Assembly (NCBI GenBank): GCA_002179805.1
Contig: NAVB01002728.1
Location: 1 to 11,822, forward strand
Direction: 5' to 3'
Length of the DNA: 11,822 bases
Source: Acanthamoeba lenticulata
Taxonomy: Eukaryota; Discosea; Longamoebia; Acanthamoebidae
In this document: positions 1-11,495 of the stretch, piece by piece
Layout: each line of letters begins with the position of its first letter
Numbering within the stretch: the first letter of the stretch is position 1
Made by a program: the position numbers and the translations under genes
The notes under the pieces: generated by a model
The model's database searches: none
What the model saw: only the letters and a program-made list of their open reading frames with translations
Told to the model about the DNA's origin: nothing

Positions 1-1193
1 AACCGCTGCAGCTCGGGGGCCTCCTCGTCCGTCCGCGTGACGATGTGCGACACGAGCGCGCGGACGCGGTCCATGTACTTGTCGTGGCCCTCTGGGTGGA
101 CCTCGCGCTTCACGGGCGTCATTCCCTGGTCGATGCCCACCACGCTCCACTTGGTCTTGCCGCCCTCCTCGCATCGCTGCAGGAACAGGTTCCTAAAGTT
201 GCCTGTTTTTATTTTTGTATTAATGATAAAACAAAATAAAAAAACTACAATAAAAATAAAGGCAAGGTACCCTCGTTGTCCCAGATGATGGGGAGTCGGT
301 CCCAGTTGTTGGTGACAATGTCGAGGCACACAAGGCGGCCCATCTCGCGGAAGAGGCGACGCCCATCGTCACCCTGGAACAGGGACTTGGCGCGCGGGCC
401 GAGTTGCTCCAGGTCCTTCCCCTGGACAAACTCCATCACCATGATGAAGGCGCGGTCGAGCTCCTTCTCCACCTTTTGGGCGTCCACGCCGGTCGGGTCG
501 GACGCCTCGGCCTTGGCGTGGATGACCCGCTTGGCTTCGCGCCACTCCCGGTTCGTGTACTCCAACACGCGCACGCGCGGCACGCGGATGCCCACGCGCT
601 GTTGTGTCGTGTCGACAACAACGATCAGCTCAGCGTGGCCATCAATGGTGATGATGCTGGTAATGATTGCTGGTACGGATGTTACTAAGGGGAGGCGCAC
701 CTCGGCAAGGAGGGCCACAAAGACCTCTTCGACGATGGAGTCACAGCCCTTGACCACGGCCACGCCCTCGGGCACCTTGACAAAGAACACGCCTGCGTGT
801 GTGCGCACGCGGAAGGTGAAATGCGGCTCGAGGCGGCAGAGGAAAGGACTGGCGTTTGTTGTTAGAGGGAAACGCGGTACCGGCCGAGCCGGCGCTGGAG
901 CGGCAAAAGGCCGAGACTTTGTTCCACTGCAGCCGGTGGATATCGGCCGCTTGGGCTCGGGCGAGCTCGGCCGGTGTGATCCTGGTTGTGCGGTGGAGAA
1001 GAAAGAGCCCCAGGGACGGTGATGGATCGTTAAACACAAGGAAAACGAGAGGGAAGGGAGGAGGAAAGCGGTACTCGTGGGGAGAGGGCGTCTTGTTGTC
1101 GAGGACGTCCAGGGAAGTGGGCAGCCAGTTTTTCTTATTCTCGTCTTCGCCCTCAGCGACAAACTTGACGACGCCGGCCTCGACTTTCACCAT
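1..1193 (-). CDS. Actin-fragmin-kinase-like protein (5' part, partial)
   Basis: Inferred exons on the minus strand are 1193-1075, 981-881, 792-701, 598-271 and 202-1, giving 280 residues before the window edge. All phases match across the four introns (93, 88, 102 and 68 bp). Joining them restores the atypical-kinase core seen in actin-fragmin kinases: GVFFVK at 74-79, VAVVK with candidate ATP-binding Lys88, RVGIRVPRVR at 105-114, MEFVQG at 159-164, the catalytic stretch DIVTNNWDRLP around Asp197-Asp204, and GIDQG with a metal-binding-type Asp238. Family knowledge: Physarum actin-fragmin kinase phosphorylates actin; HipA and PI4K-type kinases share this NxDR logic. Actin as substrate here is inference. 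The 93-bp and 102-bp introns are multiples of three without stops, so an unspliced reading looks falsely open. The start is the first in-frame ATG, at 1193. An out-of-frame ATG in a better context lies 7 nt upstream. Domains beyond the kinase are outside the window. Confidence 0.84.
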
Positions 1194-1547
1194 GCGCCAT
1201 GGTCGAAATACACCACCTTGATGAGCCAAGGAAGAGGTGGCAGAGAGTGGTCTGAACTCAGGGGAGGGGAAGAGTACCGGCAACTTGGGGTGGTGGGGGC
1301 GGGGGCAAGGCTGCCATGTGTGCTTTTTATGCGTGTATCGGGTGTGTAGATGGGTTTTGCTTCTTCTAAGTCTTCTTGCCGATGAGTGCAGGTGGACAGC
1401 AAGGTAAGTTGTTATGAAGTAAACGGTTCCTGCGCCGGGAACAGCGTCACGACGCTGAGCGAGTGGAAAGAAATTCAGCGAGAAATGCCGCCAGATTTTG
1501 CCGGAATAAAAGGTGCCGCATATCTTTTTTAATGATTTATTGATTTA
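1194..1547. promoter_or_regulatory. Divergent intergenic region between kinase and F-box repeat gene
   Basis: These 354 bp hold no supported gene and must carry both promoters. A TATA-like element, CATAAAAA on the minus strand, lies at about 1323-1330, some 130 bp before the kinase ATG. An AATAAAAG element on the plus strand lies at 1505-1512, 36 bp before the F-box gene ATG. A three-codon upstream ORF (ATG ATT TAT TGA, 1532-1543) ends 4 bp before the plus-strand start; it matters only if transcription starts before it. No E2F-type site was seen here, unlike the two divergent promoters further right. Confidence 0.45.
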
Positions 1548-2852
1548 ATGGATGCACCAGAAGGGGAGCCCTCGAAAAAGAGGCTCAAGGTCACGAGCTG
1601 CACGGCTGAATCTCCGCCTCAGGCCAGTGTGATTGTGCCGGCTCCCATATCTGCAGCTTCGACTTCAGCGGCGACGGAGGGCGTGGGTGGCCTCATGGTG
1701 GAGCTTGTCGCCTTCATCCTCAGCTTCGTCCGGCCCCTTGCCCTGCCCGCCTGCCGCGCTGTGTGCCGCACGTGGGTCAATGCCCTCCGGCACCACTGCG
1801 CTGTTGTGGCGCCCTATCCGGTCGTGGGCGGGCACGCTCGCTTGACCACCAACACCGCACGACAAAGGGGAGGTGTTGTCTTTGCTCGGAGGCTCGCTGG
1901 CGAGGGCTGGCTCTCTGTGCTTCAGTGGGCTCGCGCCAACGGCTGTCGGTGGGACGAGGAGACGTGCGCCAAAGCAGCGCGGGCAGGCCACCTGGACGTA
2001 CTCTTGTGGGCGCGCGCCAACGGCTGTTCATGGGACAAGTGGACCTGCGCCAAGGCGGCCGAAGGGGGTCACCTGAAGGTGCTCCAGTGGGCTCGTGCAA
2101 AGGATTGCCCATGGGATTCGTGGACTTGCGCAGGTGCAGCGCAACAAGGCCACTTGGAAGTGCTCCAGTGGGCCAGAGCCAACGGCTGCCCGTGGGAGTT
2201 GTGGGACACGACGCTCTGCGCCAAGGCCGCCGAGGGGGGCCACCTGAAGGTGCTCCAGTGGGCCTGCGCGCACGGCTTCCCGTGGGATTCGTGGACGTGT
2301 GCCTATGCGGCCAGGGAAGGCCACTTGGATGTCCTCGAGTGGGCGCGCACCAACGGCTGCCCGTGGGACGAGTGGACTTGCACCAGCGCCGCCAGAGGCG
2401 GCCGTTTGGACGTGCTCCGGTGGGCCAGAGCCAACGGCTGTCCGTGGGACAAGAACACCTGCAGTGCAGCGGCCGAGGAAGATCACCTGGAGCTGCTCCA
2501 GTGGGCGCGCGCCAACGGCTGTCCATGGGACAAATGGACCTGCGCCAAGGCCGCCGAACGAGGTCGTCTGGACGTGCTCCAGTGGGCGCGAGAGCACGGC
2601 TGCCCGTGGGACAAAGAAACGTGTGGATACGCAGCCAGGGGCGGCCACCTGGACGTGCTCCAGTGGGCCAGAGCCAACGGCTGTCCGTGGGACCACTGGG
2701 TGTGCGCACAGGCGGCCAAGGGAGGCCATCTTGCTGTGCTCCAGTGGGCGCGTGCCAACGGCTGCCCGTGGCGCAAGGAGACTCGCGTCTTTGCAGCCCG
2801 GCACGGACATCTGGAAGTCCTCCACTGGGCCCGAGCCAACGGCTGCCCTTGA
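1548..2852 (+). CDS. F-box protein with 27-residue ankyrin-type WARANGCPW repeats
   Basis: This is an intronless frame of 434 residues. Residues 1-46 are a polar, Ser/Ala/Pro-rich leader with a basic patch (KKRLK at 10-14). Residues 47-82 look like an F-box: LMVELVAFILSFVRPLAL, then CRAVCRTWVNAL. From residue 120 to the stop there are eleven full repeats and a half repeat with consensus GHLxVLQWARANGCPWDxxTCAxAAxx. Repeat 4 carries three extra residues (WELWDTT). F-box proteins of this form are known to join Skp1-cullin-type ubiquitin ligases through the F-box and to bind targets with the repeats; the target here is unknown. Such proteins are abundant in Acanthamoeba and in giant viruses that infect it. 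The gene has no intron while every other gene seen here does, and it ends in mid-repeat. An origin by retroposition or by exchange with a virus is possible but not shown. Confidence 0.88.
   Translation: MDAPEGEPSKKRLKVTSCTAESPPQASVIVPAPISAASTSAATEGVGGLMVELVAFILSFVRPLALPACRAVCRTWVNALRHHCAVVAPYPVVGGHARLTTNTARQRGGVVFARRLAGEGWLSVLQWARANGCRWDEETCAKAARAGHLDVLLWARANGCSWDKWTCAKAAEGGHLKVLQWARAKDCPWDSWTCAGAAQQGHLEVLQWARANGCPWELWDTTLCAKAAEGGHLKVLQWACAHGFPWDSWTCAYAAREGHLDVLEWARTNGCPWDEWTCTSAARGGRLDVLRWARANGCPWDKNTCSAAAEEDHLELLQWARANGCPWDKWTCAKAAERGRLDVLQWAREHGCPWDKETCGYAARGGHLDVLQWARANGCPWDHWVCAQAAKGGHLAVLQWARANGCPWRKETRVFAARHGHLEVLHWARANGCP
1905..2849 (+). repeat. In-frame 81-bp coding tandem repeat, 11.5 units
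   Basis: Ten units of 81 bp and one of 90 bp (repeat 4) are followed by a 45-bp half unit. The best conserved DNA is the block coding LQWARANGCPWD (for example CAGTGGGCGCGCGCCAACGG). The near-identity of these blocks suggests recent duplication or gene conversion between units. Because the period is a multiple of three, several other frames also stay open through the array. Confidence 0.93.
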
Positions 2853-4200: not shown

Positions 4201-6128
4201 TCAGCGAGCAAACAAGGGCAGGTTTGTTCGGCGGGCGATCTCCTGCACAACGGCATACGGCTGCAGATCGTTTGTGAATCGGTGGCGCGCCCCGAACAGG
4301 TCGAAAGACTGCTCCTCTGCAGATGACGAGTCACGAGCCGCGAAGACGAGCGTGTAGCGCCGCAAGACTTGGAGCAGGTCGTCCTCGGAACCTACAGTCG
4401 TCGTGGCGTGCGTCGCTGTGTTGGCGGCGATGAGGTCGTCCCATCGGCGAGCAACCGAGGGCGGCACGTCGAAGCCACGCTCGCCGGCCAGGCTCGGTCG
4501 TCGCGTCTTCGGGTCCACGAACGCAGTGAAGAACGCAAGCCGCTCAGCATCGCCGTCGTCATTGTCCTCACCAGGCGAGGAGGAACTGGATTTCATCGTC
4601 GTTGTCGTAGTGGTCACTACACGACCGATGTCCTCCTGACGCAGGAGGTCCTCGTCGGTAGGCCAGCCAGGAGTCGCCACCGCGAAGTAGTGCTCAAGTG
4701 GATAGGCCAAGCATTGCTCGCGAATGCAATCGACGATGAGGCCTCTGCCATCACAGGACACCGTAGTTGAGGATGATGGCTGGTGGGTGGGAGCATAAGT
4801 GGAGCGAGAAGGAGAACCTTGAGGCATAGTTGAGCATGTTGAAGTGGCCATCACACAGCGCTGGGTCGGCATAAAAGAGGAGAAGCGAACCGCGCGTAAC
4901 GACGGCTGTCGAAGCCATCAGCGTCGTGAAGGCGTCGCGATACTGGTTGAGCACCTCGAGGTTGGCTGTCGCGTCCTCGGCCCTGCACGTACGTGCAGAT
5001 CGCCAGCATCAGTGACCCGCAGATCGAGGTACAGAGATGTAAATGAAAATGAGCCGCTCGAACCGATAGAGAAAGGGCTTGAGGTCAGGGAAGGCGGCGG
5101 CCAGGTCGGCCTTGGTGAAGAACTCACGCCCGCTGGCGAGTCCGATCAGTTGAGCAAAGTGGAAGGCCACCGTCTTGAACTGCGACGCGCTCAGCTCGTC
5201 CTTGACCTCCCTGAACACCAAGCGGATGAAAAATAAAATGTTTAACGCAAAAATTTGAAAATGCGTACCGAAAATCGACCTGGAGCAGACACTCGCGCCG
5301 AGCCGTGAACGTATCAGCGGCTTTGAGGGCAGCCTTGGCGAGTTGGCGGTACTTGGTCTTGCTGAGGAGTCCCATCAAGTCGCGGGTGGCCTTGACCCAG
5401 CGCAGCGGCACATTGCGGTGCACCAACCTTCATTGGCCAGCAATAACGCAGAAACAGTGGTCAACGTTTGTTGTTGGGTCTTGTCGGGTAGATGGGCCAC
5501 GAGGTAGTACCTGTGAGCCACGGGCGAGGGATGGTCCTGCTCGTGCAGGGAGTAGGTGTAGTAGACGCAGTTCTGAATCGCATCGGGAATGCCCTGAGAC
5601 GAGGTCGAGAACGGGTTCGCATAAGAACTAACCCATGGACTAATTTGAGTTGCAGTGATGCCATACCTTGAAGCAGTCACAGACGATGCCGTTCTCGTCA
5701 AGCACGATAATGTTCTTGTTCTCGGGCTTGTGCCGCAGCTGTCGTTGGAGGTGCGTCAGCGAGCATTCGACTTCATCACCGACGCTCGCTTCGGTTGTGT
5801 GGTGCCCTTGCTCTTCTTCTTCCTCTTCATGGTCCTCTTCGTGAAGCTGGTCGGTGGATGAAGCGAAATCGCAGAATTTGTAGCAGAGTTGCGTGGATGG
5901 CAAGCGATCGAAGACGTACAAAGTGTCCAAATCAGTCGAGTCCTGAGAGCCAATGATGAGGTACACGTAGTGGTTCGCATCTAAATCGATCGAGTCATCA
6001 CCTTGGCCAAGTGAAAGCGCTAGATCGGTCTGCCCATTCCGCCTCAACTTGTTGCGCAAATTCCTACGTTTCCTTCCTCGGCCACGCTTTGTCAACACCT
6101 TCTCCTCTTTCGTGGCCACTCCTTCCAT
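4201..6128 (-). CDS. Putative nucleotidyltransferase-like protein (GS...DxD), unknown function
   Basis: Inferred exons are 6128-5667, 5593-5511, 5427-5269, 5210-5064, 4982-4818 and 4744-4201 (462+83+159+147+165+544 nt), giving 519 residues with matching phases. Introns are 73, 83, 58, 81 and 73 bp. The fourth junction is the least certain: a donor at the GTACCT at about 5030 is an alternative. Residues 15-31 are strongly basic, like a nuclear signal. Then comes LIIGSQDSTDLDTLYVF with Gly60-Ser61 and Asp66/Asp68, which resembles the GS...DxD signature of nucleotidyltransferase folds, though the spacing is shorter than usual. An acidic run follows (about 93-115), then IVLDENGIVCDCFKG, YYTYSLHEQDHP and a basic, helical stretch (RNVPLRWVKATRDLMG). 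The C-terminal third is Ser/Thr/Asp-rich and ends NLPLFAR. The enzyme class is inference. It shares a 96-bp divergent promoter with the GINS subunit gene. Confidence 0.68.
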
Positions 6129-6224
6129 CTTGCTAGCTTACACCGAAATGGTTTGAAACTTTTGCGTGAAATTCTGCACTGGTCCGATTTTGGCGCCAAA
6201 GCCGGAAACACAAACGTTTAACGA
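6129..6224. promoter_or_regulatory. Compact divergent promoter of GS-DxD gene and PSF3
   Basis: Only 96 bp separate the two start codons. No TATA element was seen. The main feature is a 12-bp palindrome (6189-6200), listed separately. The two genes probably share regulation. Confidence 0.7.
6189..6200. promoter_or_regulatory. E2F-type site TTTGGCGCCAAA
   Basis: This perfect 12-bp palindrome matches the E2F/DP consensus TTTSSCGC (TTTGGCGC) on both strands. It lies 24 bp before the PSF3 ATG and 60 bp before the ATG of the divergent gene. E2F control of replication-fork genes, GINS included, is known in animals and plants. That this organism uses it here is inference from the motif and its position. 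Confidence 0.75.
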
Positions 6225-6903
6225 ATGAACCCCTACGATCCGAACAGCATCGAGAGCCTTTTGGCTGAGGAGGAACGAGTGCCCGTCCGCATCCGCTGTC
6301 TCGAGGAGCTGCAGGATGTGCCGTACTGGCTTGCCAAGGTTCGATTTACGCCAATGATTTACGCTTAAATCGTTGATCAACCTGGCTTTTTGTCCAGGAG
6401 GTGGACGAGTCAAGGGTCGGAAGGCTCAAGGTGCCTCCACAATACCAAGAGAAGTTCATGACCGCTATTGGCACCGACCCAATGTCCACCACGCTCAAGC
6501 GTACCCCTTACTACTTCCCTATCGGCCTCCAGCTCAGCCGACCAAAGCCCTTGTACCTACGCCTCGGCCCGACTCTTGCTCGTTCACTTCTAACGGTTCA
6601 TGGCATAGGGACTATTATGACGACGATGAGGGACTTGAAGACGACGAACCAGATACCCCACCGCCTTACCTCGACCTGATTCGTGTCTTCCAAACGCGCT
6701 ACATGAGCGTCGTCGACCGAGCAGTCAACTGGCGACATGAGGACACGGCCTTTGCGGCCAAGCTCTCGGCCAAGGAACGCGACATCTACTACGCGGCACA
6801 CGAGGCCACCACGCAATTTGCCTTGTGGCGCAGCGGGAAGGAGGCCAAGCCCACAGCCACCATCCACGCAACAAGCGGCAAGCGCAAGCGCCACGACGCC
6901 TAA
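6225..6903 (+). CDS. PSF3: DNA replication complex GINS subunit Psf3
   Basis: Exons are 6225-6338, 6398-6552 and 6609-6903 (114+155+295 nt), giving 187 residues, within the usual size of Psf3. Introns are 59 and 56 bp; the second has a clear branch-like CTTCTAAC. Family landmarks appear in order: SIESLLAEEERVPV (8-21), matching the N-terminal 'DDIL..EE.vPV' block; DVPYWLAK (31-38), the hallmark of Psf3; VPPQYQEKF; then an acidic linker (DYYDDDEGLEDDE) and the helical C-terminal part from YLDLIRVFQTRY to a basic end (KRKRHDA). Psf3 is one of four GINS subunits and acts with Cdc45 and Mcm2-7 in the CMG helicase and with DNA polymerase epsilon in the nucleus. The start is the first ATG and gives the expected N-terminus. 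An E2F-type site lies just upstream. The gene converges on PrimPol. Confidence 0.94.
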
Positions 6904-7027
6904 TGACGCTTGTAGTTGTCGTTCTGAGGCCTTGTAGGCCGACAGGAGGCATCAAGCCGTTTAATTTTTAATACAAAAATAACTACCTTTTTTTTTTTTA
7001 CAAAATTTAACTTTTTTAACCAAAATA
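6904..7027. terminator. AT-rich convergent 3' region of PSF3 and PRIMPOL
   Basis: These 124 bp separate the two stop codons. After about 6959 the sequence turns very AT-rich, with a run of 12 T on the plus strand (6988-6999) and further T and A runs. It must hold both poly(A) sites. No exact AATAAA was seen. Confidence 0.5.
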
Positions 7028-9726
7028 TTAAGGCCAAAGGGAAGGGTCATCAAGGATGGCTTGGTACAACGACTCATCCGTCCAGAAGTCGTCGACCTCT
7101 CCTCCTCGTTCTTCCTGCTTGAGCGATGACACCGTCTGCGACTGAGGAAGGTGCAGCTGAGGCGGGGCAGCGGCAGGCCGGACGGCACTGGCGGCGGGCG
7201 GCCGCGCTGGGCTGACGACGGTCGGACAGATGTCGGGCGGGAGCGGATACGAAGGAGAGCGGTAATCGACGGCTTGGCAATCTGGGTCGAAGCACTTTTG
7301 GTAGAATGTTGCGCTTCGCAGGTCCACCACGATCATGATGTGGTTGCTCTTGTGCTCGCGGCCAATGTTCTCGCAGTAGCGGTTGCCAGAGATGTTATAC
7401 ACCAGAAGCGAGTTGTTCCACTTGCGCACGCTGCGAAAGCCGCCGCGCCGGCCGGGCCGTTCGCCGCTCACATGGCGAGCCACGAACTCGTCGATGGCCG
7501 GCAGCCCCGAGCCCCAGGACGATGATGATGACGAAGAGGACGACGAAGTCGGTGATAATTGAAGCGATAAAGAGTATGAAGTGTAGGAAGAGGAGGCAGG
7601 AAGGGCGTAGAAGGGGAGAACAGGCTCATGAGGCGACGTGAAAAGGGGCGAGTAGAGGGCCGAAGCGCGGTCCGGCGACGCGTCGGTGCAGGGGGAGCAT
7701 TCGGGCGTGACCCGAGGCAGCGTCCTCGGTGGCAGCATCAGTCCTAGCCCAGCCGAGGCTGAAGGAGGCGGAGGGGAGAAGGTGAGACTCGGGACTGGCC
7801 TTGTGCCGCTCGTCTCCGCCTTGATAGGCGGCGAGGATAAACCAAACAGGCCGGGGACCAAAGTCGGCGGCAGCGTGACAGGCGTGAGATAGTGTGAGTA
7901 GAACAAGGTGTCTCTGCCGTCCTGTGTTGTTCACATGTAGTGCAACATGTTAGCCATAAAACGCAAATATACAACGACTGCCAGAGGAGGAAGCGTGCCT
8001 CGGACGGTACGGGCTCGCAGGAGAGAAGATACACGCGCTTCGACTCGGTCTCCTTCTCTTCGCCGATCCGAGTCACCAACGAGCTCATAAACCACGCATA
8101 CGAGATCTCGGAGTCGTTCTCGTCGTCCTTTGACTCGGTCTTGATCACCTGCGGGCCTGTCTCTTCGTCTTCCATTTTCTCCAACTTCACACGGCGCAAC
8201 AGGTCCGCCTCAGGCTGGCTTGCTTCCGCGTCAGCGGTCGTGCTCGTGGACGTTGTTGGCAGCTGTTCTACCGGTTGATGACGGGATGGCTCCTCGCTAG
8301 GCGGTGCGTAGGCGTTGATGCTGCTGGGCCGAAGGAACAGACGCTTGCCCATCTTCGTGGAGTAGATCAGCCGAAAGTTGCGATTGCGTGTGTAGACGCC
8401 CATGTCCGCGATGAACACTTCCTTGCCCTTGTCTGGTGGTGAGCATGATCACGTGCAAAGAGACGTAAGCAACTGTCTGTTCGTTCGCCTTTCCCATTCC
8501 AAGGTCGTACCGTTCATGACGAAGAAGCGGTCAAGCATGTCGGCATTGATGTAGGGCGGGAGCAGCGATGGTGGTGGCGTTGACGGTTCAAGGTCATCAG
8601 ACTCAACATCGTCGCCTGTAGCGGAAGAAGCCTGATCGCGTTGGCGCTCTCGCTCGCGAACGAGCAGCTGGCGAAGAAGGACTATTTTGTGGAGGAGCAT
8701 GCGGACAAAGTGGCCGCAGTGGAGATTATTAACAAAGGCATAGTTGTCAGGTAGCCGGAGGACGAGGTGGCGCGAGAACTTGCGCCCGTCGGAGCTGTCG
8801 AGATCGATGAAATGGCGACGGCGCACACGAAAAGGTAGCGCGAAGAAGAGCTGGATCTCGCGGCCGACGAGCTTCATGAAGGCCCGCATCAGTGCTTCTT
8901 CATGCCCACCCGACACGATGTGTTGGTTCTCCGCCTTCAAGAACTCAATATCAAAATAGAGATTGCAGCACAGGCCCTCGCGGATCTGTCAACAAGAAGT
9001 GAGTGCGGCTTCTCGATGATTAAAAAAGATCTACGTGAGTGGGCGGAAGAGAGTACCATCTCGTAGTAGTTGCGGTCAGCTGGATCGAGTTGCATGTAGC
9101 GTTTCCAGAACTCTTTGTAGGTCGTGACGATGTAGGAGCGTAAGCCTGTCCCCGCCAAAAGTATAAGCTTGTATATATGAACACACGAAACGTTAGGGGC
9201 ACATACCACTTTCATCATCCTTACGTCGCTCGCGCGCAAAGACATGCAGCCCCTCTCCAGGTCGCCCGTCGGCACAGCGAAAGGCCAGCTCCTGCCGAGG
9301 GAACTCCTCATATGTGTCACTGTTGCGAGGCATTGGTATATTTGGACCACACTAGGCTTTCTGTTACGTTTGTCTGGGCAGGTACCCAACAGGCGTACGA
9401 AGAACGTCCAGCTTTTGCTTCCAAGCAGCACCCTGTTGCTGGTCGCCGTCGTAAAAGCGCTCGGGAGGGATGGCCCGAATCACCGGCCGCTTCACAGGCG
9501 ACCTGTAGACCTCGCGTGGCCGTTCTGCGCCCCACTCTCGCTTCGCACCACTCACTTAAGGGCTTTGTAAGTGCTTTTCAAAAGTAAAACAAATTTGGGA
9601 CATACATGGGCTTGGGGAGCGCAGGTCAGTTACGCTGTCGTCGATGAATGCGCGCTTTCGTTTGAGTTGATTTTGAAATTCCTCGATTTCCGCATCAAGA
9701 GACGAAAGGTTCACGAACCGCGCCAT
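7028..9726 (-). CDS. PRIMPOL: PrimPol, DNA-directed primase/polymerase
   Basis: Seven exons (9726-9606, 9554-9386, 9319-9207, 9145-9057, 8985-8511, 8432-8011, 7921-7028) give 760 residues; all phases match over introns of 51-89 bp. PrimPol is the archaeo-eukaryotic primase family enzyme that reprimes stalled forks and bypasses lesions in nucleus and mitochondria. Seen in order: EEFPRQELAF, SYIVTTYKEFW, LYFDIEF with catalytic Asp176 and Glu178, LDSSDGRKFSRHLV with Ser235 and His237, FIADMGVYTRNRNFRL with Asp332, and LLSCEP. The UL52-type zinc knuckle has Cys646, His653, Cys673 and Cys678, with the same spacing (C-x6-H-x19-C-x4-C) as human PrimPol. Unusual points are an acidic insert at about 275-320, a second one at about 350-420, and a Pro/Ser-rich stretch (about 470-600, with ten serines in a row) before the zinc domain. 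The acidic tail (EVDDFWTDESLYQAILDD) resembles an RPA-binding motif. Several upstream ATGs lie between the start and the E2F-type site. Confidence 0.96.
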
Positions 9727-9802
9727 GGCCCTCGGTGGGGCGGTGAACAATCAGTGCGTTTCGTTGCATTACATGCATCTTGTCATGCGCCCAACGTTCA
9801 GG

Positions 9803-9814
9803 TTTCCCGCCAAA
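9803..9814. promoter_or_regulatory. E2F-type site TTTCCCGCCAAA in the PRIMPOL/PIP-box divergent promoter
   Basis: TTTCCCGC on the plus strand and TTTGGCGG on the minus strand both match or nearly match the E2F/DP consensus TTTSSCGC. The site lies 76 bp before the PRIMPOL ATG. It is 99 bp before the assigned ATG of the plus-strand gene (9914), or 7 bp before an alternative ATG at 9822. No TATA element was seen. It parallels the site at 6189-6200. Confidence 0.7.
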
Positions 9815-9913
9815 GCCAAAAATGAAAATTGACAGAAAACGAAAACGCAGGCAAGTTGTGCAACGAGATGAGGAGGCAGACATGTGGCGGCAGTCGAAGT
9901 GCCGCGAGGCTCC

Positions 9914-11495
9914 ATGCCTATGGAAGGCGAAGAGGATACACGTGAAGTGATTCGCCAACTCCCGCCATCTCGTCCCACTCGGTGGGTACAATTCATGTTC
10001 AAGCCCACCAATGCTGGTTTGCCCAAGTTCGTTTATCCACCCGCACCCCAGAGAGGTAAGAACAAGCGATCCAAAAGAACCAAGGATTGGACCGCATCAC
10101 CAGATAAGCAAAAGCAGACTCAGATCGATGCGTTCTACCCATCCACGAAGCCGAAATCTCGCAACGCTTTTCAACTTGACCGCTTCCCGCCCGGCGAGGA
10201 TCCTGCCCCACAGTCGACCGTGCCGCTTCGACGAACGCTTCCCCCACTGCACGTGCAACCGGTCGGCCTTCCCTCGCAGCCAGCAGTAGCTCCTGCACCG
10301 CGGACGCCAACCCTGCCCGCCCCTCTGCCCGAATTGTTGGCTTGGAGTACGCCTCGCACTAGAGGATCTACGAAGCGGGCGCGCTACCTGGCTCCGCTGC
10401 CCACCGCGACCTCGGCGGCTTTGCCCGATCCCACGCCGAAGCCTCTTCGCACGCCAACCGAGGGTGCTTGTAACACAAGAAGCCGTGAGAGCGTTTTGCC
10501 CGACGCCGCCAGAACTCAGCATCGTCCGCAACAGTTGAGCAAGAAGAGTTCTGTCCCAGCCATAGCACCTGTAACTGACGTCGAGATGTACGCGCTTCCC
10601 GATGACGAGTGGCGTCGTCTCTGCAAGGCGCCCGTCGTTACCACCCCGGCGGCACAGCGGCAGGCGGCCAGGGCAAGCCCGCGGCTGGCCGCTGGACACG
10701 CAACGAGGAACCAAGCCTTTGCCACGACAACCGCCGGCGATGCACACCCACATCAGCAGCAGCCACACGGTGGACCCGTTCGGACCTTGTTGCCGCCGCT
10801 TATGCGCTGTCCACACAACGCAAGACTTTTCGCCCCATCGACCGCTACGACGGCACCGCTGCCGCCTCTGCCGCCGCTTGATCCGAGTCTTGCGGTACGC
10901 TTCAGTCTCTGCAAGCTCGATCATGCATTTTGTGACGAAGATGATGACCGGCTGCGCATGTAACAGGTGGAGGCAAAAGCAATACTGATGAGGAAAAAGC
11001 TCGCCTCGACCCCGCTGCATAACGTGGCACCCAAGTCAGTGGTGCAAGTCGTTCGCGAAGGAACGTTGCCTGGGGCGGCCATGCCGCGCGACAAGGTCAG
11101 CCTCATCGACCCGCAGACCCAGACCGCTCGTGACTTCCCACTCTACCGCGAGGAGGACGTCTTTGTGCTCTCACCTGCCATCAAGCAGCTCGAACGTCTT
11201 CCGTTGCCCTCACGTATCCTTGTCCCATCGCATACCCGAGCAACATCACCGTCAACATCTGATGCATGTGCTTGGTGCTGTTCTTTTGTGCGTCGCAGAG
11301 GAGGCACTCATAGATGACGACGCTCCTACGACGCGCGAGCAGTTTGAGGATGGCCGGCGCCGGGTCCTGAAAGCGCGTCAGCAGTGTGTGCGGTTCCTCC
11401 AAGCTGTGGCCAAGGACCAGCCCGAAGTCTTTTCGGTCGAACGCCGGATGGCCTTCCTGCGCCAGCGCATGACAGCCGCCACCAAGGAAGAGTAG
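9914..11495 (+). CDS. PIP-box (PCNA-binding) protein of unknown family
   Basis: Exons 9914-10894, 10967-11213 and 11299-11495 (981+247+197 nt) give 474 residues; introns are 72 and 85 bp with matching phases. Residues 46-66 are basic (KNKRSKRTK). Residues 68-75, QTQIDAFY, fit the PIP consensus Q-x-x-[ILM]-x-x-[FY]-[FY] exactly, followed by PSTK. Known PIP boxes dock proteins on the PCNA clamp. Residues about 85-325 are Pro/Ala/Thr-rich, with several S/T-P sites and basic patches (TKRARY), and look disordered. The C-terminal part, from VEAKAILMRKKL to TAATKEE, looks folded and partly helical (EDGRRRVLKARQQCVRFLQAV), but I do not recognise it. Without the first intron the frame stops at 10963. 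The N-terminus is uncertain: ATGs at 9822, 9868 and 9882 precede it in another frame, and the 9822 frame could join by a roughly 77-bp intron. It shares an E2F-type promoter with PRIMPOL. Confidence 0.7.
10115..10138 (+). other. PIP-box coding segment (QTQIDAFY)
   Basis: All anchor positions are present: Gln, a hydrophobic Ile at +3, and Phe-Tyr at +6/+7, with a Lys four residues after the Tyr. The last point, with the Asp at +4, is partly like a PIP degron (recognised by CRL4-Cdt2), but the usual Thr-Asp pair is missing. This supports PCNA binding more than regulated destruction. Confidence 0.75.

What the first reader, a model, noticed from the sequence alone, without database searches (positions are those of the whole stretch)
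4201..11495. Symmetrical replication neighbourhood: two divergent pairs, each with an E2F-type site
The order is [GS-DxD protein] - E2F site - [Psf3], then [PrimPol] - E2F site - [PIP-box protein], with Psf3 and PrimPol tail to tail. Psf3 (CMG helicase) and PrimPol (fork repriming) are certain replication proteins, and the third member has a PIP box. Finding three fork-linked genes, plus one unknown, in 7.3 kb under two copies of the same element is unlikely in a random stretch of a eukaryotic genome. It predicts that the two unknown proteins act in replication or in the response to stalled forks.
Basis: partly seen in the sequence, partly recalled or inferred. Interest (0 to 1): 0.85.

Follow-up and report, generated by a model that had tools for sequence, protein, structure and literature searches.

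The report
Twin E2F-site promoters, four amoeba genes
Four neighbouring genes of an amoeba-like genome sit back to back around two copies of a DNA switch that in this genome marks replication genes; two are known replication proteins, one may bind the replication clamp, and the fourth is unexpectedly a nuclear-looking relative of bacterial RNA-repair enzymes whose joining half has lost its active site.

Summary
In order: gene 1 (4201-6128, -), TTTGGCGCCAAA (6189-6200), Psf3 (6225-6903, +), PrimPol (7028-9726, -), TTTCCCGCCAAA (9803-9814), PIP-box protein (9914-11495, +). Psf3 and PrimPol are confirmed by homology, and both sites are unchanged in a 97%-identical second haplotig. The element is enriched genome-wide: 342 sites against 32 for the reversed pattern and 48-81 expected. 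It stands upstream of 8 of 12 replication genes and 0 of 9 chaperonin genes, and the genome encodes E2F/DP-type and RB-type domains. S-phase co-regulation is well supported, without expression data. Clustering itself is weak evidence: about 8.5 stretches of this size with two sites are expected genome-wide.

The main correction is gene 1. It is not a recognisable fork protein but a Pol-beta-type nucleotidyltransferase joined to a T4 Rnl1-like RNA-ligase region lacking the catalytic KxDG. It belongs to an unnamed family (47 of 48 bacterial-type relatives keep KxDG) with stand-alone cousins in two large viral contigs. The amoeba form has a basic, NLS-like N-terminus. The PIP protein has no detected relative. 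Novelty: new variant of a known kind.

The parts
4201..6128 (-). Gene 1 ('GS-DxD protein'): 6 exons (6128-5667, 5593-5511, 5427-5269, 5210-5064, 4982-4818, 4744-4201), 519 aa; basic NLS-like N-terminus, Pol-beta-type nucleotidyltransferase with helical domain, then degenerate T4 Rnl1-like ligase region
   Evidence: Splice model open in both haplotypes; relatives P0001 (54% identical, 93% of query) and P0002; 48 bacterial-type family members; fold matches; no KxDG, GSQDSTDLD present
6189..6200 (.). Palindromic E2F-type site TTTGGCGCCAAA in the 96-bp interval between gene 1 and Psf3 start codons
   Evidence: identical in haplotig C32
6225..6903 (+). GINS subunit Psf3, 3 exons (6225-6338, 6398-6552, 6609-6903), 187 aa
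   Evidence: dN/dS 0.14 between haplotypes
7028..9726 (-). PrimPol, 7 exons (9726-9606, 9554-9368, 9319-9207, 9145-9057, 8985-8511, 8432-8011, 7921-7028), 766 aa, AEP polymerase domain and UL52-type zinc finger; tail to tail with Psf3
   Evidence: dN/dS 0.14
9803..9814 (.). E2F-type site TTTCCCGCCAAA in the 187-bp interval between PrimPol and PIP-protein start codons
   Evidence: identical in haplotig C32 although the interval around it differs at 10 positions plus 13 inserted bases
9914..11495 (+). PIP-box protein, 3 exons (9914-10894, 10967-11213, 11299-11495), 474 aa, much low complexity; PIP motif QTQIDAFY at residues 68-75
   Evidence: no homologue found; dN/dS 0.29

Best explanation
The 7.3 kb holds two compact bidirectional promoters, each built around one E2F-type site, so all four genes are probably switched on together at entry into S phase by E2F-DP and held off by an RB-type protein. 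Psf3 and PrimPol act in DNA replication. The PIP protein probably docks on PCNA. Gene 1 is a nuclear nucleotidyltransferase derived from bacterial/phage-type RNA-repair fusion enzymes. Its Pol-beta-type domain probably adds nucleotides to nucleic-acid 3' ends, while its former RNA-ligase domain survives as a non-catalytic, perhaps substrate-binding, module. Shown: gene structures, sites, conservation in two haplotypes, genome-wide link of the element to replication genes, predicted domain folds, absence of the ligase active-site motif. Inferred: binding, timing of expression, nuclear location, substrates.
Confidence: 0.6

Rival explanations
1. Asymmetric promoters: the sites serve Psf3 and PrimPol only. 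Gene 1 and the PIP protein are passengers on short divergent intergenic regions and are not cell-cycle genes.
For: CDT2-INTS7: an E2F-responsive bidirectional promoter drives only CDT2 on E2F (PMC2194621, abstract). Gene 1's homologues are RNA-repair-like. A strict palindrome is found near a sugar-transporter-like ORF.
Against: Gene 1 (60 bp) and PIP (99 bp) have site-to-ATG distances inside the roughly 53-100 bp seen at MCM and polymerase genes. The first site is palindromic. The PIP motif suits a replication role.
Confidence: 0.27
2. Gene 1 is itself a replication-fork or fork-rescue protein, for example an end-processing enzyme acting on primers beside PrimPol.
For: Shared palindrome with Psf3; NLS-like N-terminus in both amoeba proteins; the similar fold HalB has a structure with oligodeoxyadenylate, i.e. 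a DNA-handling nucleotidyltransferase (entry titles).
Against: Closest relatives by sequence are fused to RNA ligases, and a viral stand-alone relative lies about 1.6 kb from a class-I tRNA-synthetase-like gene. No fork-protein family was listed for gene 1 in Pfam, NCBIfam or PHROGs beyond a sub-threshold ORC3_N match that I take as chance.
Confidence: 0.12
3. The two sites are chance matches without function.
For: About 8.5 stretches of this length with two sites are expected in the genome under uniform placement.
Against: Only two places in 11.8 kb match TTTSSCGCS and both fall between divergent start codons; both are unchanged between haplotypes; enrichment at replication genes.
Confidence: 0.05

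Closest known systems
E2F-regulated bidirectional promoters (e.g. CDT2-INTS7, PMC2194621, abstract read)
   Same: Short divergent intergenic region with an E2F-responsive sequence; a replication gene on one side and an RNA-related gene on the other
   Different: Here two such regions lie 3.6 kb apart with Psf3 and PrimPol tail to tail; the direction of E2F action is untested
Bacterial-type nucleotidyltransferase-Rnl1 fusion proteins (P0002 type; Planctomycetaceae locus L007)
   Same: GSxDSxDxD domain plus helical domain, followed by a T4 Rnl1-like region; P0002 is 30% identical over 60% of gene 1
   Different: The amoeba form lacks KxDG and the C-terminal motifs, ends early, and has a basic N-terminal extension and an acidic insert
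[quoted passage not shown]
   Same: Pol-beta-type nucleotidyltransferase working beside RNA ligases, predicted to restore lost nucleotides before ligation
   Different: No RlaP family match listed in the Pfam scans; here the domain is fused to the ligase region, and the ligase lacks its active site in the amoeba
HalB (Hailong) and AadA/AAD(9) nucleotidyltransferases
   Different: 8-14% identity; no evidence of an antibiotic or signalling substrate
PrimPol; eukaryotic GINS Psf3
   Same: Clear sequence homology
   Different: Ordinary divergence

Membership tests
E2F-regulated promoters | Match to the E2F consensus close to the start of transcription | tested here: met
   Two strict sites 24-99 bp from four start codons; transcription starts themselves unknown; the consensus is recalled
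E2F-regulated promoters | Element linked to replication genes in this genome and not to unrelated genes | tested here: met
   8 of 12 replication genes against 0 of 9 CCT genes; not exclusive,
E2F-regulated promoters | Genome encodes E2F/DP and RB proteins | tested here: met
   PF02319 at 2 loci, PF01857 at 1
E2F-regulated promoters | E2F binding and G1/S expression | not testable with these tools
   needs ChIP and synchronised RNA-seq
GINS Psf3 | Sequence homology over most of the protein | tested here: met
   8q6o_O E 9.5e-10, residues 30-183 of 187; no Pfam family listed
PrimPol | AEP polymerase domain and UL52-type zinc finger in one protein | tested here: met
   5l2x 4.7e-30; PF03121 1.9e-14; one spliced frame in both haplotypes
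PCNA-binding (PIP-box) proteins | QxxhxxFY-type motif | tested here: met
   QTQIDAFY at 68; 127 of 20,000 shuffles hold this strict class
PCNA-binding (PIP-box) proteins | Binding to PCNA | not testable with these tools
   no homologue to lean on
Pol-beta nucleotidyltransferase superfamily (gene 1, N-terminal) | Fold | tested here: met
Pol-beta nucleotidyltransferase superfamily (gene 1, N-terminal) | G-S followed by DxD metal ligands | tested here: met
   GSQDSTDLD in both haplotypes, GSKDSTDLD in P0001; GS..S.D.D in 42 of 48 relatives
Pol-beta nucleotidyltransferase superfamily (gene 1, N-terminal) | Third catalytic acid | tested here: inconclusive
   not assigned; E160, kept in 46 of 46 aligned relatives, is A in both amoeba proteins
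T4 Rnl1-type RNA ligases (gene 1, C-terminal) | Nucleotidyl-lysine motif KxDG | tested here: not met
   absent from the whole of gene 1 and P0001; present in 47 of 48 relatives
T4 Rnl1-type RNA ligases (gene 1, C-terminal) | Sequence match to a ligase family model | tested here: not met
   no PF09511/PF09414 match for gene 1 or P0001 up to E 1, though relatives match
T4 Rnl1-type RNA ligases (gene 1, C-terminal) | Ligase-type fold | tested here: met
RlaP nucleotidyltransferases | Sequence match to the RlaP family model | tested here: inconclusive
   no such family listed in Pfam scans

The most novel reading that the evidence does not exclude
An RNA-repair nucleotidyltransferase-ligase fusion of bacterial or viral origin has been converted, in an amoeba lineage, into an S-phase nuclear nucleotidyltransferase. 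Its ligase half was kept as a dead nucleic-acid-binding module, it was placed under the same E2F switch as the CMG subunit Psf3, and it acts on primer or broken 3' ends at stalled forks together with PrimPol and a new PCNA partner.
Probability: 0.1. Interest if true: 0.85.

Novelty: new variant of a known kind. Interest (0 to 1): 0.5.

Why it matters
It gives a sequence-based candidate E2F regulon for an amoeba-like genome (342 sites) that can be read for unknown S-phase genes, and two concrete candidates. One of them shows a bacterial/phage-type RNA-repair enzyme in a eukaryote with a nuclear-looking N-terminus and its ligase half apparently switched off. If gene 1 proves to be S-phase expressed and active, it links nucleic-acid end processing to replication in a lineage whose fork-rescue factors are, to my knowledge, little studied.

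Tried and rejected
Frameshifts in gene 1 and Psf3: my first models jumped frame and carried an X. Comparison with P0001 and a look for GT-AG pairs showed ordinary introns (5428-5510 and 6553-6608). Rejected. My first PrimPol model (782 aa) kept a piece of intron: the haplotig has a 2-base gap at 7979-7980 that breaks that frame. With the donor at 8010 the frame is open in both haplotypes (766 and 768 aa).

ORC3_N match of gene 1 (E 0.029; 0.18 for the spliced protein): falls in an acidic insert and is far below the cut-off. Rejected as chance.

Sld5-family locus C325 as an E2F-positive GINS gene: the site lies before a zf-PARP-looking ORF (resemblance recalled), so I moved it from positive to negative in the count (8 of 12, not 9 of 12).

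PIP protein identity: no match among 7995 scored candidates, in PDB (only a designed protein at E 0.75) or above chance in Pfam. No further protein search was left.

Viral relatives: a first viral scan with P0002 confirmed none of 7 stretches; a second with the family alignment confirmed 2 of 29.

Reversed-pattern control: it changes CpG to GpC, so I also computed Markov expectations. Enrichment falls from 10.7-fold to 4-7-fold and stays clear.

Rows dropped before the count: of 16 CCT regions, L048 and L054 (cut by contig ends); of 20 replication-side regions, the two E2F-gene loci (no site with at most one mismatch there); haplotig duplicates on both sides, judged by near-equal family scores. 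One CCT locus (C37) has a one-mismatch site inside the gene, not upstream. Fold families not listed by the structure searches are not treated as excluded.

Literature: none of the papers listed (titles and abstract starts seen; one search lists 10 of 28, five of 6) appears to describe this locus or such a protein in Acanthamoeba. Most subscription papers are not held.
Full report
What is there. The window lies on contig C1473 of a 48.48-Mb, 1825-contig genome. A second haplotig, C32:130555-137855, is 97% identical over the whole 7.3 kb. The gene order is as reported. Spliced models with GT-AG introns of 48-89 bp are open from start to stop in both haplotypes. dN/dS between the haplotypes is gene 1 0.40, Psf3 0.14, PIP protein 0.29 and PrimPol 0.14; few substitutions, so rough, but consistent with four real genes under constraint.

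Identity of the known pair. Psf3 matches PDB Psf3 8q6o at E 9.5e-10 over residues 30-183. It matches no Pfam family up to E 10, and the genome search with the GINS/Sld5 family found only another locus, so it is a divergent member. PrimPol matches PDB 5l2x at 4.7e-30 and has the UL52-type zinc finger (1.9e-14).

The sites. TTTGGCGCCAAA (6189-6200) and TTTCCCGCCAAA (9803-9814) are the only TTTSSCGCS places in the window. Each lies between two divergent start codons, with 60 and 24 bases to gene 1 and Psf3 and 76 and 99 bases to PrimPol and the PIP gene. Both are identical in the two haplotypes, although the second interval differs at 10 positions plus 13 inserted bases. Genome-wide, TTTSSCGSSAAA occurs 342 times against 32 for the pattern read backwards. 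Markov models of order 1-3 trained on 36 fetched loci predict 75, 81 and 48.

Is it an E2F element? I fetched the 5' regions of genes found by family search: MCM, DNA_pol_B, Sld5/GINS and, as control, CCT chaperonins. After collapsing likely haplotigs there are 12 replication genes and 9 control genes. A site with at most one mismatch, about 53-100 bp before an ATG-initiated ORF, was found for MCM 5 of 8, polymerase 3 of 3 and the Sld5-family locus 0 of 1. CCT genes had such a site upstream in 0 of 9. Fisher p = 0.005; the distance range was read off after the search, not set before. The genome encodes two E2F_TDP loci and one RB_B locus. In Dictyostelium the RB orthologue represses gins1-4, mcm2-7, pcna and polymerase subunits (PMC3386910, passages). 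Of two further strict palindromes examined, one has a BRCT ORF 0.94 kb downstream and one a sugar-transporter-like ORF 0.46 kb downstream. The site is therefore strong but not exclusive evidence of an S-phase gene.

How surprising is the cluster? With 342 sites, P(two or more in a given 7295 bases) is 0.0013, but about 8.5 such stretches and about 8.7 pairs as close as these are expected in the genome. Of the 50 distinct strict sites listed, out of 342, the only pair within 5 kb is this locus's own haplotig copy on C32. I did not measure how often replication genes neighbour each other. C325 may be another such case: an E2F-type site before a zf-PARP-looking ORF upstream of a GINS-family exon (resemblance recalled). 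The cluster is therefore not shown to exceed chance.

What changed in the amoeba form. GS..S.D.D is present in gene 1, its haplotype and P0001, and in 42 of 48 relatives. KxDG is absent from the three amoeba sequences and present in 47 of 48 relatives, the exception being P0049. C-terminal conserved columns (E, G, K, K; 44 of 44 aligned relatives) fall beyond the amoeba protein's end. The first 32 residues hold 12-13 K/R against 1-5 in 43 relatives over 500 aa, and none of the 48 has an NLS-like run by my pattern in its first 60 residues. Against activity: E160, conserved in 46 of 46 aligned relatives, is alanine in both amoeba proteins. Against the ligase label: gene 1 and P0001 hit no ligase model in Pfam. 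The genome has seven PF09511 matches elsewhere, so a working ligase elsewhere is possible.

PIP protein. Its only PIP motif is QTQIDAFY at 68, kept in the other haplotype. No relative was found; low complexity limits that search. A PCNA-docking role is plausible and untested.

How it most likely works. E2F-DP binds each central site and drives transcription both ways at S-phase entry, an inference from the element's genome-wide company. Psf3 joins the CMG helicase and PrimPol reprimes forks (established functions of these families, recalled). Gene 1 is best read as a nuclear nucleotidyltransferase with a dead ligase domain. RlaP enzymes give the working model: they are predicted to restore nucleotides at RNA ends before ligation (PMC7824862, passages). 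Whether its substrate is RNA or DNA is open. The main rival is that E2F acts in one direction only, as at CDT2-INTS7 (PMC2194621, abstract).

Verdict. The regulation is a new instance of a known kind; gene 1 is a new variant of a known kind.

Noticed in passing
G000:C78, C588, C825, C35, C1320, C1078, C155: Seven PF09511 (T4 Rnl1) matches elsewhere in the genome, the C78 one over the whole model in a 2428-aa open frame
   Followed up: no
L041 (G000:C325:8500-13500): One-mismatch E2F-type site before a zf-PARP-looking ORF (recalled) that lies upstream of a GINS-family exon: perhaps another repair/replication neighbourhood
   Followed up: partly
L006 (G000:C5:7308): Strict E2F palindrome with a sugar/MFS transporter-like ORF 0.46 kb downstream on the same strand: possible non-replication target
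   Followed up: partly
L004 (G000:C4:41535): Strict E2F palindrome 30 bp before an ORF without Pfam match, with a BRCT-domain ORF 0.94 kb downstream on the same strand
   Followed up: partly
window 1536-2852 (+): Ankyrin/F-box-like gene of a large family, with many related places in the genome
   Followed up: no
window 245-1186 (-): Actin-fragmin kinase catalytic domain, PF09192 E 6.7e-21
   Followed up: no
window 7028-7110 (-): PrimPol ends in an acidic/aromatic stretch EVDDFWTDESLYQAILDDPSLWP that resembles the RPA-binding motifs of human PrimPol (recalled, not tested)
   Followed up: no
P0049: A relative of gene 1 from a 32.7-kb contig that also lacks KxDG: ligase loss may have happened more than once
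   Followed up: no
G000 assembly: Uncollapsed haplotigs, e.g. C1473/C32 at 97%, and 6 of 8 MCM genes apparently in pairs; counts of sites and genes are inflated accordingly
   Followed up: partly
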